Source of the DNA: Prochlorococcus marinus subsp. marinus str. CCMP1375
GTDB taxonomy: Bacteria > Cyanobacteriota > Cyanobacteriia > PCC-6307 > Cyanobiaceae
Assembly: GCF_000007925.1 (NCBI RefSeq)
Contig: NC_005042.1
Span: 310,001 to 374,000 of the forward strand
Direction: 5' to 3'
Length of the DNA stretch: 64,000 bases
Below the pieces are notes generated by a model, which did not search any database, was not told the DNA's origin, and worked only from the letters and a program-made list of their open reading frames with translations. Positions 56,467 through 60,578 of the stretch are shown in pieces. The position numbers and the translations under genes were made by a program. Position 1 is the first letter of the stretch. Every line of letters starts with the position of its first letter.

Positions 56467-56539
56467 TTTCCTCTTCGGGACTTGAACCCTAGGCCACTCC
56501 CTTACTAAGGGAGTGGCTCTTCCGCTTAGCTACAAGGGC
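56467..56539 (-). pseudogene. Degenerate tRNA-Thr copy
   Basis: A 73-nt tRNA-like sequence on the minus strand that closely matches the intact tRNA-Thr(GGT) at 60507-60578. Its 5' acceptor half, anticodon stem and T-loop are recognisable. However, the 3' acceptor strand reads AGAGGAA and pairs with GCCCTTG at only about four of seven positions. The D-stem and T-stem each have a mismatch, and the anticodon is AGT. The similarity continues past the 5' end into the spacer and the tail of tRNA-Tyr (to about 56562). It is best read as a decayed duplicate. Confidence 0.78.
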
Positions 56540-56769
56540 TTGTGGAAGGTGGACAGGGTTGGTTCACCTAAAGGACCTTGCAAGACATTGAATTGATTAA
56601 TGCTCAAGCAATTTAGACCAAATATTGAGGCAGACCAAATCTTTTTTAGGGAGTGCTGGGATCTGTTCTTAGTCCATTTTAAGTATGTTTAGTCCACTGT
56701 AATTCAACCTTGATTGTTCTTTCTAATCGCTTGCTACTATAAATACATCAACTTGTATACATTAGTTTT

Positions 56770-57723
56770 ATGAAATATAATAAATTAATCAGTTGGATAA
56801 TTCCTTGCTTCAATGAACAAGAAGTTCTAGAAATAAGTATTCGAAGAATAATTGATTTTACTGCTTATTCTAGTCATTATGATTGGGAATTTATTTTTGT
56901 TGATGATGGAAGTAAAGATAATACAAGAGACATCATTAAGTCCTATAACTTGCAGGATGATAGAGTTAAATTAGTTGGATTATCAAGGAATTTTGGACAT
57001 CAATATGCTGTTCAAGCTGGCTTAAATAATGCATATGGAGATGCAGCAATAATAATAGATGCTGATTTACAAGATCCTCCAGAGATTGCTAAAGAAATGA
57101 TTTCAAAATGGGAAAAAGGGTTTGATGTGATTTCCGGTAGACGAGTTGAACGAGTTTCGGAAACTTTCTTTAAGAAAATAAGTGCTTCCTGTTTTTACCG
57201 CATATTAAATTTACTTACTGAAATCCATATTCCTTTAGATACAGGAGATTTTAGACTAATAGATAGGAAGGTAATTGATACACTAAAACAAATGCCCGAG
57301 AAAGGACGATTTATTCGTGGTCTAGTGAGTTGGACTGGGTTTAAGCAGACTCAAATTAAATATAAAAGAGAGCCTAGACTAGCAGGTAAAACTAAATATT
57401 CTTTAAAAAAAATGATTGTATTTGCCTTAGAAGGCCTTACAGCATTTTCAAGTCGGCCCTTGCGTTTAGCAACTATATTTGGTTTAGTTTGCTCATTCTT
57501 CTCCTTCTTGGCAATTTTGTATGTCTTATATATAAGATTATTTACTTTTGCTTGGGTTCCTGGTTGGGCTGGATTAGCAGTTGCAATATTATTTGCAACA
57601 GGCGTACAGTTAATTTCTATTGGTATATTAGGGGAATATATAGGAAGAATATATGATGAGTCTAAAGGGAGACCTATGTATATAATTGATGAAAATCTAG
57701 GTTTTAGTAAAGATAAAGACTAG
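56770..57723 (+). CDS. GtrB-type polyprenyl-phosphate glycosyltransferase
   Basis: A 317-aa family 2 glycosyltransferase of the dolichol-phosphate mannose synthase class with two C-terminal membrane helices (about 230-290). It shows SWIIPCFNEQEVL, FVDDGSKDNT, LSRNFGHQYAVQAGL, the metal-binding IIDADLQDPPE and GDFRLIDRKVID. The GtrB type moves a sugar from a nucleotide donor to a lipid carrier in the inner membrane, the first step of O-antigen or surface decoration. It is the first gene of the island cassette. Confidence 0.9.
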   Translation: MKYNKLISWIIPCFNEQEVLEISIRRIIDFTAYSSHYDWEFIFVDDGSKDNTRDIIKSYNLQDDRVKLVGLSRNFGHQYAVQAGLNNAYGDAAIIIDADLQDPPEIAKEMISKWEKGFDVISGRRVERVSETFFKKISASCFYRILNLLTEIHIPLDTGDFRLIDRKVIDTLKQMPEKGRFIRGLVSWTGFKQTQIKYKREPRLAGKTKYSLKKMIVFALEGLTAFSSRPLRLATIFGLVCSFFSFLAILYVLYIRLFTFAWVPGWAGLAVAILFATGVQLISIGILGEYIGRIYDESKGRPMYIIDENLGFSKDKD

Positions 57724-57764
57724 ATATTGCTTAATATAGTATAAGCAACTTTTTGTCCACCTAG

Positions 57765-59186
57765 ATGATAAGAGAAAAGGCTCAACCAATAACTCTAACT
57801 CTCGAAGATAGATCTATTAAGAGAGTTTTTGCTTTATCATTTTTAATTGGATTTATATTTTGGTTTCTAGCAGCTTTTAGACATTTTCTTTTACAAAGTA
57901 ATGCTTTTGACTTAGGCCTTTTTGATCAATGGGTTTGGCTGCAAAGCGTAGGTGAGCCTCCTTATTCATCTATGACAGGACTTCATCTAATGGCTGATCA
58001 TGGAGCCTGGCTATTATATATCCCAGCTTTTCTTTATAAAATTCAACCTTCAATTCATTGGCTTTTAGCAACACAGTCTTTTTCCTTGAGTTTTACATCT
58101 TTACCTTTATGGATGCTTTGTAAGCAAAAGGGATTAAATAATCGTAAAAGTTGGTTAATCTGTTGCTTGTGGTGGCTTCAGCCAGTTGTATTTAATGTAA
58201 ATATTTTTGATTTCCATCCAGAAGTCTGGGCTATGCCATTGTTGGCCTTTTCATATTTGTCTATTCGTGCTAATAAGAATTTCTTATGGATTTTCTTGAT
58301 CTTCATAATTCTGGGTACTCGAGATGGTTTGGTTTTATTAACTCTTGGTTTAGGTTTTGAGCAGATCCTAAGAAGAAATTTCACTAGGGGAATTTCTGTA
58401 ATTTTGTTATCTTCTTCCTGGCTATTATTTTTAAATAATATTCTCTACCCACTATTGAATCAGGGCAAAGGATCTATTATGGCTGTAAGTCGATATTCAT
58501 ATCTAGGCAACTCCCTCGAAGAAATACTTTTTAAAATAATTACTAATCCAATAATTATTTTTCAAAGCATTGATTGGTCAGGTTCGATTTTTTATTTGAT
58601 TATTTTGTTTCTGCCATTTATATTTTTTCTTAGATCAAGCTCATTGATAGTTTTATCTGCTTCAATTCCTTTACTTCTGACAAATATTTTATCGGATTCT
58701 TTTTCTCAACGGACTTTAATACATCACTATAGTTTGCCAATCATAATGATATTAGTTGTTGCTTCAATCGATGGGATGGCTCAGAGTAATATTAAATCAG
58801 AAATATCGATCAGGAATAGATATTTATGGATTCTTCTGACTTGGTCATTATTAGCAAAACCATTATTTTTTATTGGGCCATATTTAAGTAGAATATCTTT
58901 AATTCAATCAGCTCATGAAGCTTTTTCACTGATCAAAAGTGATTCATCTATTCTTACAACAAGCTATCTTGCACCTCACTTAACACAAAGATCACAAATC
59001 ACATTTCCAAGGGATACCAAAGATATTAATAGTATTGATATTTACGATGTTATTCTGCTAAACCCATTGGACCCAGGCTGGCAATCTGATAGGAAAATTC
59101 AGGAGGAATATTTGAGCAAGGCTAGATTAGAAGGTTGGGACTGTAAAGAATGGAGCAATGGCCAGGAATTATGCATATCCGATTAA
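57765..59186 (+). CDS. DUF2079 membrane protein
   Basis: A 473-aa polytopic membrane protein with about ten helices. The N-terminal NAFDLGLFDQWVWLQS and HLMADHGAWLLYIPAFLY segments are the DUF2079 signature, and HHYSLPI appears later. The family is predicted to include GT-C-type glycosyltransferases using lipid-linked sugars, but this is not proven. It follows the GtrB gene by 41 bp. It could be the final transferase that adds the sugar to a surface polymer. Confidence 0.85.
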   Translation: MIREKAQPITLTLEDRSIKRVFALSFLIGFIFWFLAAFRHFLLQSNAFDLGLFDQWVWLQSVGEPPYSSMTGLHLMADHGAWLLYIPAFLYKIQPSIHWLLATQSFSLSFTSLPLWMLCKQKGLNNRKSWLICCLWWLQPVVFNVNIFDFHPEVWAMPLLAFSYLSIRANKNFLWIFLIFIILGTRDGLVLLTLGLGFEQILRRNFTRGISVILLSSSWLLFLNNILYPLLNQGKGSIMAVSRYSYLGNSLEEILFKIITNPIIIFQSIDWSGSIFYLIILFLPFIFFLRSSSLIVLSASIPLLLTNILSDSFSQRTLIHHYSLPIIMILVVASIDGMAQSNIKSEISIRNRYLWILLTWSLLAKPLFFIGPYLSRISLIQSAHEAFSLIKSDSSILTTSYLAPHLTQRSQITFPRDTKDINSIDIYDVILLNPLDPGWQSDRKIQEEYLSKARLEGWDCKEWSNGQELCISD

Positions 59187-59193
59187 TAAGAAA

Positions 59194-59571
59194 CTATTCT
59201 TTAAATATATACAGCTTGCATAAGATATAAAAAGTTATAGTGTAGCTTAGCATTGCAAAACCTTGAGCTATAGGGGAATTAATACTTTGCTCTAAGAGGA
59301 TATTAAGAGTTGATAGATTGATTGTATAAGCCAACAAGAAACCTAGCAAAAATTTAATAAATTGACTGATCTTCTTATTGCCTCGTGATCTAAATACATA
59401 TCGCTTATTTAAAATAAAGGAACATACAATACCTATTAAATAACCAATAATATTGCTAAGTTGAGGGTTCAATTTAAGAAGAGTTTCACAACTTAGAATT
59501 GTGCTATACCCTATACAAGTGTTTATAAACCCTACAGCAAGATATTTTATTAATTCTATTTTAATTTTCAT
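59194..59571 (-). CDS. GtrA-family membrane protein
   Basis: A 125-aa protein with four hydrophobic helices. GtrA signatures are present: IKYLAVGFINTCIGYSTIL, NIIGYLIGIVCSFILNKRYVF, QFIKFLLGFLLAYTINL and ITFYILCKLYIFKE. GtrA proteins are thought to flip lipid-linked glucose across the inner membrane in serotype-converting cassettes. Here the gene is convergent with the DUF2079 gene rather than collinear with GtrB. Confidence 0.85.
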   Translation of the reverse strand: MKIKIELIKYLAVGFINTCIGYSTILSCETLLKLNPQLSNIIGYLIGIVCSFILNKRYVFRSRGNKKISQFIKFLLGFLLAYTINLSTLNILLEQSINSPIAQGFAMLSYTITFYILCKLYIFKE

Positions 59572-59950: not shown

Positions 59951-60062
59951 GCCTCGTGAATCATGTGTTGGAGACGGCTGATCTAGCCTTTAATTTGAAT
60001 TTTAGTCATTGTCTGGTCTCTTGAACGTCATAATTGGGTTTCATAGAGTACTATTTTTCGTT

Positions 60063-60353
60063 TCACCAAAGAGCAAAATGTCTGATGGAAAGTTCTTCGA
60101 GTCGAACTCCTTCCATCCAATTGCTGGCTATTGCCTTTAAGGGATATTGCTCGTTATGACCACTGCGGTGTTCTTGCAGCGGCCCATCGATATACAAATC
60201 AATGGCTTCTTTGAGGTTTTGCGGTGGTGTTGATCTAATTGAGCTGGTCTTTGTAGAGAACTTTCAACAGCATTTGCCCATAACAAAGCTTGGCTTTTGG
60301 TCCTTGATATTCCTTCTTTCTAATTAATGCTTGCCAGCTTTTGCCGCTCCTTC
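60063..60353 (-). pseudogene. Decayed coding remnant, unknown family
   Basis: Two frames on the minus strand read like protein end to end, with a frame change between them. One spans about 60235-60353 (WQALIRKKEYQGPKAKLC). The other spans about 60063-60263 (NLKEAIDLYIDGPLQEH, then NWMEGVRLEELSIRHFALW and stop). Neither has a usable start, and the local GC (about 48% at 60121-60180) is higher than that of the flanking island genes. I do not recognise the family. It may be a frameshifted remnant of a transferred gene. Confidence 0.4.
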
Positions 60354-60418
60354 AAATAGTTGCCATTTCTTGAATTGCATCAGGTCAGATGCATCAAGCA
60401 AGAATGAATCGGAGAGCC

Positions 60419-60448
60419 AAAGTGGACTAAAAAGTGGAGGTCCACTTT
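60419..60448 (-). terminator. Hairpin downstream of tRNA-Thr
   Basis: A perfect 9-bp inverted repeat (AAAGTGGAC and GTCCACTTT) with a 12-nt loop, about 60 nt past the 3' end of tRNA-Thr in the direction of transcription. A second hairpin (AACCTCT/AGAGGTT, 60460-60481) lies closer. They may end the tRNA transcript or mark an island boundary. The U-run is weak. Confidence 0.35.
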
Positions 60449-60506
60449 CTTTCTTTAAGAACCTCTGGTGCCTGAGAGGTTTTCTCTTGGAAGAGGTTGA
60501 GGAAAG

Positions 60507-60578
60507 TGCCCTCGTCGGGACTTGAACCCGAGACCTCTCCCTTACCAAGGGAGTGCTCTACCGCTGAGCTACAAGGGC
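60507..60578 (-). tRNA. trnT: tRNA-Thr (GGT)
   Basis: A 72-nt intact cloverleaf on the minus strand. The acceptor GCCCTTG pairs with CGAGGGC, the anticodon is GGT in loop TTGGTAA, the T-loop is TTCAAGT and the discriminator is A. It is transcribed after tRNA-Tyr with a 10-nt spacer. CCA is not encoded. It is the intact partner of the degenerate copy near 56.5 kb. Confidence 0.96.

What the first reader, a model, noticed from the sequence alone, without database searches (positions are those of the whole stretch)
56467..60578. Small island bounded by an intact and a decayed tRNA-Thr
The sequence shows a degenerate tRNA-Thr copy at 56467-56539 whose similarity to the intact tRNA-Thr extends through the 10-nt spacer and into the tail of tRNA-Tyr (to about 56562). 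The two copies are direct repeats about 4 kb apart. Between them are surface-sugar genes, a truncated gene and decayed sequence. Known biology: tRNA genes are frequent insertion sites, including for recently described Prochlorococcus integrative elements (tycheposons). I infer a tRNA-anchored insertion that has lost its recombinase, or a duplication that trapped foreign genes.
Basis: partly seen in the sequence, partly recalled or inferred. Interest (0 to 1): 0.7.

Follow-up and report, generated by a model that had tools for sequence, protein, structure and literature searches.

The report
Decayed mobile island at tRNA genes
A 4-kb block of surface-sugar genes in this marine cyanobacterium is the worn-out remains of a mobile DNA element that inserts at one pair of tRNA genes; related, seemingly intact elements sit at the same spot in relatives and often leave behind a whole second tRNA gene instead of the usual fragment.

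Summary
In detail: 56465-56562 matches 60505-60601 at 86 of 98 columns; both copies hold tRNA-Thr, the spacer and the tRNA-Tyr 3' tail. It is a tRNA-anchored insertion. Beside the proximal tRNA-Thr lies a broken tyrosine recombinase gene (60366-60012, minus). Relatives of it occur in 40 of 400 family genomes; of the 30 loci read, 29 lie beside the same Tyr-Thr pair next to aroQ. Empty and occupied sites sharing a flank are seen in a related genus, and near-identical element ends occur in hosts of different genera. SS120's own far flank matched none of the 12 right ends and 3 flanks tested.

Unusual: 16 of 27 far tRNA-Thr copies are identical to the working gene. In 25 of 27 left ends two AGGGAGTG cores stand at a fixed distance; 15 of 25 modules, from two groups, hold a promoter-like site facing the tRNA, but 8, SS120's included, are no better than shuffles. 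I infer that these elements rebuild a complete tRNA-Thr at both ends. The crossover point is unresolved. Tycheposon membership could not be tested.

The parts
56465..56562 (-). Far (displaced) repeat: decayed tRNA-Thr, spacer and tRNA-Tyr 3' tail
   Evidence: 86 of 98 columns identical to 60505-60601; below Rfam tRNA cut-off
56563..56658 (-). Element left-end module, ending in the second core AGGGAGTGCTG (56648-56658); promoter-like hexamers at 56638-56633 and 56615-56610 by homology of position only
   Evidence: aligned with left ends of relatives; in SS120 the promoter score itself is no better than shuffles
56670..56698 (.). Left-arm repeats TAGTCCATTTT and TTTAGTCCACT, possible recombinase arm sites
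   Evidence: function inferred
56770..57723 (+). Cargo: family 2 glycosyltransferase
   Evidence: PF00535 E=9.6e-35; best NCBIfam model NF047588 286.5 bits, below its cut-off of 500
57765..59186 (+). Cargo: DUF2079 membrane protein
   Evidence: PF09852 E=3.8e-141; 106 of 400 family genomes, own included, have a match, best other 57% identity
59194..59571 (-). Cargo: GtrA membrane protein
   Evidence: PF04138 E=3.8e-27
59606..59950 (-). Truncated gene: fragment of an asparagine-synthase-like protein of about 660 residues
   Evidence: full relative read (named by eye)
60012..60366 (-). Broken tyrosine recombinase gene, equivalent to residues 1-126 of 327, in three reading frames with stops
   Evidence: tblastn of two intact homologues, E 5e-37 and 4e-42
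60380..60504 (.). Element right end with arm-like repeats AAAGTGGACTAAAA (60419-60432) and GTGGAGGTCCACTTT (60434-60448)
   Evidence: similar sequence beside the proximal tRNA-Thr in 11 of 13 other genus genomes; a strict arm pattern does not match SS120
60506..60578 (-). Intact proximal tRNA-Thr (GGT)
60587..60670 (-). Intact tRNA-Tyr (GTA), upstream partner of tRNA-Thr

Best explanation
56465-60578 is the remnant of an integrative element of a site-specific family that uses the tRNA-Tyr/tRNA-Thr pair beside aroQ. A tyrosine recombinase encoded just inside the right end recombines the circular element with the tRNA pair. The pair next to aroQ stays complete, and the second copy of tRNA-Thr, spacer and Tyr tail marks the far end. 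Shown: repeat, recombinase relic, relatives of the recombinase at the same site, conserved element ends, and empty versus occupied sites in a related genus. Inferred: that the recombinase does the reaction by a circle, and that the left end supplies a promoter and the 5' part of tRNA-Thr so that the far copy is again a complete, expressible gene (about 0.5). In SS120 the recombinase broke, the far tRNA decayed, and a glycosyltransferase-DUF2079-GtrA surface-sugar set stayed as fixed cargo.
For: Repeat. Recombinase relic, residues 1-126 with stops and frame changes. Intact 327-residue homologues P0001 and P0002 in two genus members, Phage_integrase E=1.1e-25 for P0001. Matches at E<=1e-20 in 40 of 400 family genomes, own relic included; loci of the best 30 were read: 29 have tRNA-Thr, tRNA-Tyr and aroQ beside the recombinase. 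Right-end sequence beside the proximal tRNA-Thr in 12 of 14 genus genomes, SS120 included; second copy in 6 of 14. Conserved left end inside the far copy, 13 aligned. Single-copy sites in G105, G251 and G263 carry the flank type found at the far copy of G244, G258, G173, G384 and G383. Transfer: G070 and G027 share 97% of left-end and 90-91% of right-end bases and 94% of recombinase residues, with AroQ at 65%. Tandem elements in G013: two recombinase genes with a tRNA-Thr copy between.
Against: SS120's own far flank (56287-56466) matched none of 11 genus right ends and 3 flanks (G007 far, G009, G012 far) above shuffles, and its own right end scores 14.5; HL and g56 flanks were not tried against it. 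One of 30 recombinase loci (L052) has no tRNA within its 3.9 kb. G009 and G012 lack the right end. The spacer pattern expected from one crossover is not seen: in G070, G027 and G032 both spacers match each other within a genome and differ between genomes. One scan of IMG/VR, with short patterns from one protein, confirmed no relative. G195 and G229 have a second copy without a recombinase match at E<=1e-20. No tool observed excision or a circle. The promoter match in SS120's genus is no better than shuffles.
Confidence: 0.9

Rival explanations
1. A local tandem duplication of tRNA-Thr and its flank later trapped foreign genes, with no recombinase involved.
For: Both copies are direct repeats and the far one is decayed.
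Against: A recombinase relic lies inside the repeat pair; similar ends recur in several genera; single-copy and occupied sites with the same flank type exist in a related genus.
Confidence: 0.04
2. The element is a typical tycheposon as defined by Hackl et al. 2023, with nothing special about its ends.
For: Prochlorococcus host (name recalled from genome size), tRNA site, tyrosine recombinase, cargo, and a size at the low end of the 4-200 kb given by Layoun et al. (passages read).
Against: Hallmark genes and recombinase clade could not be compared because the Cell paper is not held; passages of PMC10187409 speak of integrases of 'Tycheposons and cryptic elements' from that work.
Confidence: 0.4
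3. Crossover lies in the tRNA-Thr segment AGGGAGTGCT, so the far copy joins the host's Thr 3' half to the element's Thr 5' half.
For: A second AGGGAGTG core at a fixed distance in 25 of 27 left ends; a clean junction through it in G287 and an imperfect one in G010.
Against: The clean 18-base junction was found in 1 of 400 genomes, exact matches only; the retained Tyr tail is then unexplained; the spacers do not fit.
Confidence: 0.5
4. Crossover lies in the tRNA-Tyr 3' tail, so the proximal tRNA-Thr is element-borne and the far one is the host's old gene.
For: In many far copies identity stops at about the same place in Tyr (GGGCCGGGTTGG); G345 has a spacer of the common g56 type at the far copy.
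Against: G013, G005 and G345 share only the first bases of that tail; five g56 genomes carry the whole Tyr at the far copy; G200 has the deciding spacer base of G345 in a native setting; the spacers do not fit either.
Confidence: 0.35

Closest known systems
Tycheposons (Hackl et al. 2023, Cell; not held, known here through citing papers and recall)
   Same: Picocyanobacterial elements at tRNA genes with a tyrosine recombinase and cargo
   Different: Hallmark genes and clade untested; whether that paper describes complete tRNA genes or promoters at the displaced end could not be checked
tRNA-targeted genomic islands as defined by Islander (PMC4383910, passages read)
   Same: Tyrosine recombinase, tRNA target regenerated at one end, tandem arrays
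   Different: Islander expects a tRNA fragment at the other end and rejects hits inside a full-length tRNA gene; here 16 of 27 far copies are complete
tRNA-Phe/tRNA-Cys integrase elements of picocyanobacteria (PMC10187409, passages read)
   Same: Recombinase close to a specific tRNA, variable cargo, often a small serine recombinase nearby
   Different: Different tRNAs; that integrase family was not compared by sequence here
Phage HP1 integrase
   Same: Best solved relative of P0001 (1aih, E=3.4e-07); that HP1's attachment segment spans complete tRNA genes is recalled, not checked
   Different: HP1 is a Haemophilus phage (recalled); the match covers residues 172-321 only

Membership tests
tRNA-targeted integrative island (Islander) | tyrosine recombinase gene inside the island | tested here: met
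   relic in SS120; intact in relatives
tRNA-targeted integrative island (Islander) | tRNA gene at one end and a direct-repeat tRNA fragment at the other | tested here: inconclusive
   direct repeat met, but the far copy spans the whole tRNA-Thr, and Islander rejects hits within full-length tRNA genes
tRNA-targeted integrative island | empty site in relatives | tested here: met
   three single-copy and five occupied genomes of g17 share a flank type; not shown for SS120's own flank
Tycheposon | integration at one of seven tRNA genes | tested here: inconclusive
   tRNA site shown; whether Thr or Tyr is among the seven was not readable
Tycheposon | specific recombinase clade and hallmark genes | not testable with these tools
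   defining paper and its sequences not held
Tycheposon | length 4-200 kb (as cited by Layoun et al.) | tested here: inconclusive
   SS120 remnant about 4.0 kb; in relatives copies on one contig lie about 1 to 53 kb apart, the shortest below that range
Phage or phage satellite | phage structural or packaging genes | not tested
   only chosen proteins were scanned; of 8, 4 had PHROGs hits: integrases, nucleases, a ParA-like family and families of unknown function

The most novel reading that the evidence does not exclude
A picocyanobacterial element family has captured its own target tRNA operon: the left end carries a promoter, tRNA-Tyr (whole in five g56 genomes, only its tail elsewhere) and the 5' part of tRNA-Thr, so an integration leaves complete, expressible tRNA-Thr genes at both ends and so amplifies a tRNA gene instead of splitting off a fragment. 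Fragment-based island finders would miss such elements.
Probability: 0.45. Interest if true: 0.65.

Novelty: new variant of a known kind. Interest (0 to 1): 0.5.

Why it matters
It explains a surface-sugar locus in a model Prochlorococcus as fixed mobile cargo, defines an insertion hotspot used in several genera, and suggests that islands whose displaced end is a full tRNA gene can escape standard searches. If the promoter module works, it shows how an element can use a tRNA operon without cost to the host.

Tried and rejected
Simple duplication was rejected because of the recombinase relic, the recurring ends and the single-copy sites. The idea that SS120's far flank is an older right end (a shared 13-mer seen by eye) was tested and dropped: scores stay within shuffles. 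My first reading, crossover in the Tyr tail proved by the spacer of G345, was withdrawn after G200 showed its deciding base in a native setting. A scan of IMG/VR confirmed no relative of the recombinase. The scan of named genomes gave nine loci: eight picocyanobacterial and one weak hit in an Acidobacteria record, E=8e-4. The clean Thr-half junction was found in 1 of 400 genomes. A plain Phage_integrase search was unspecific: all 14 genus genomes and all 14 controls ring. Paper searches: all six terms on tRNA, promoter and attP restoration gave 0 papers; a search for complete tRNA genes at attachment sites gave 1 paper, seen in the listing only and on another subject. Listings seen for Prochlorococcus with tRNA or mobile-element terms were 20 of 98, 15 of 415, 12 of 23, and 12 of 123 for tRNA integration sites; none of the listed titles names this site. 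This is no proof of absence in print. Structure prediction and fold search were not used. One notebook entry says 16 of 25 intact far copies; recounted it is 16 of 27.
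Full report
What is there. The window lies at 310001-374000 of a single 1,751,080-base contig; that size is, from recall, Prochlorococcus SS120. The repeat 56465-56562 / 60505-60601 is confirmed with 86 of 98 identical columns. The far copy has 7 differences in the 3' half of tRNA-Thr, 3 in the rest of Thr and spacer, and 2 in the Tyr tail. It does not reach the Rfam tRNA cut-off.

Cargo. Between the copies lie a family 2 glycosyltransferase, a DUF2079 protein and a GtrA protein; the likeness to three-gene GtrABC surface glycosylation sets is recalled. 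The frame 59606-59950 is a fragment of an asparagine-synthase-like gene (named by eye). GC between the copies is 0.331 against 0.381 for the window. DUF2079 matches occur in 106 of 400 family genomes, own included, the best other at 57% identity. In 3 of 5 relatives read with 1.5 kb flanks, GT2 or GtrA lies beside it. So the cargo is of a common type, not specific to this site.

Recombinase. The stretch next to the proximal tRNA-Thr matches residues 1-126 of a 327-residue tyrosine recombinase in three frames with stops. Intact copies were found in G007 and G013; contig lengths equal those of AG-409-L21 and AG-439-M18 records. P0001 has the R..E, H..R and C-terminal Y motifs (their meaning is recalled), a Phage_integrase domain and HP1 integrase as best solved relative.

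Same site elsewhere. All 14 genus genomes have AroQ and the Tyr-Thr pair beside it (13 loci, plus the window). Right-end sequence lies beside tRNA-Thr in 12 of 14, SS120 included; G009 and G012 lack it. A second copy, whole or partial, is found in 6 of 14: G000, G005 (another contig), G007, G010 (49 bases), G012, G013; many are drafts, so this is a lower bound. In the family, 40 of 400 genomes match the recombinase at E<=1e-20, own relic included. Loci of 30 of these 40 were read: 29 are beside tRNA-Thr of this pair with aroQ, and one, L052, is not. Of 32 matching genomes outside the genus, 20 show a second copy of the tRNA segment.

Empty site. One search took 25 chosen genomes, 12 of them g17 members without a recombinase match. 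Of these 12, G105, G251 and G263 have one tRNA-Thr with a flank ending like ATCAATTGCTCAAG. The same flank type, with small differences, sits at the far copy of the occupied genomes G244, G258, G173, G384 and G383, and there the Tyr tail runs into the element's left end. Of the other nine, G195 and G229 have a second, changed copy, G144 and G275 keep right-end-like pieces (by eye), and G029, G078, G159, G205 and G213 have one copy with other flanks; those of G029 and G205 resemble, by eye, the flank of a second tRNA-Thr fragment in G399. G168 and G179 of g56 also have one copy, with a flank like that of G260's far copy. SS120's own far flank found no partner among those tried.

Ends. The 13 left ends aligned share a core and an arm close to AGTCCACTTTT, with variants; right ends share GTGGAC/GTCCAC repeats. 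A strict right-arm pattern matches 26 of 30 loci but not SS120. In 25 of 27 left ends two exact AGGGAGTG copies are 138-141 (20) or 206-207 (5) bases apart; G032 and G229 lack the exact pair, and G010 and G287, which have no such module, were left out of the 27. Facing the tRNA, 15 of the 25 modules hold a sigma-70-like promoter with shuffle frequency 0.03 or less; all are from g17 or g56 and are related to each other, so they count as two lineages at most. G070 and G027 give 0.06 and 0.08. The other 8 (SS120, G007, G012, G013, G052, G089, G345, G005) are no better than shuffles. In five g56 genomes (G260, G097, G307, G265, G139) the far copy holds a complete tRNA-Tyr; in the sixth, G345, it does not.

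Far tRNA copies. Of 27 far copies examined, 16 are identical over 71 bases to the working tRNA-Thr of SS120, 2 are only 3' halves (G010, G287) and 9 are changed. Four more seen later are changed (G195, G229) or fragments (G399 second, G007 third). Many are from related genomes and not independent. Together with the module this suggests that the far copy is meant to be a working gene. Expression was not tested.

Transfer. G070 and G027, hosts with AroQ 65% identical, carry elements with 97% (left end), 90-91% (right end) and 94% (recombinase) identity. The spacers of both copies nevertheless match within each of these genomes and in G032, while they differ in G052, G089, G097 and G307. I cannot explain this without gene conversion or repeated cycles, and it leaves the crossover point open.

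Known work. Layoun et al. (PMC10872708, passages) describe tycheposons as 4-200 kb, at one of seven tRNA genes, with a XerD-type recombinase. PMC10187409 (passages) describes a separate integrase at tRNA-Phe and tRNA-Cys. Islander (PMC4383910, passages) defines islands by a tRNA and its fragment and rejects hits within full-length tRNA genes. PMC10803314, PMC12416821 and PMC2441476 were seen as passages only and add background. Hackl 2023, Williams 2002 and Eppley 2022 are not held.

Verdict. Whether the family is part of the tycheposons is open. The complete tRNA at both ends is the point worth following.

Noticed in passing
L018:2430-3632 (G013 element): Cargo gene joining an Mrr-type restriction endonuclease domain to a ParA-like ATPase.
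   Followed up: no
L015:2972-6658 (G010): 1228-residue protein with DUF285 and an autotransporter domain between the proximal tRNA pair and a tRNA-Thr half.
   Followed up: no
L012:13508-14089 (G007): Serine-recombinase-like reading frame beyond the far tRNA copy, named by eye from the translation.
   Followed up: no
L126 (G007:C2:97800-97820): A third tRNA-Thr fragment of 21 bases with a right-end-like flank, a likely older relic.
   Followed up: partly
L052 (G367): The one recombinase locus read that has no tRNA nearby; its Tyr-Thr segment lies about 16 kb away.
   Followed up: no
L125 (G399): A second, truncated tRNA-Thr 3' half ending at AAGGGA without an element arm; its flank resembles single-copy sites of G029 and G205 by eye.
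   Followed up: partly
G000:C1:500171-500590, outside the window: The only Phage_integrase match of the own genome at E<=0.001; the relic in the window is not reached by that model.
   Followed up: no
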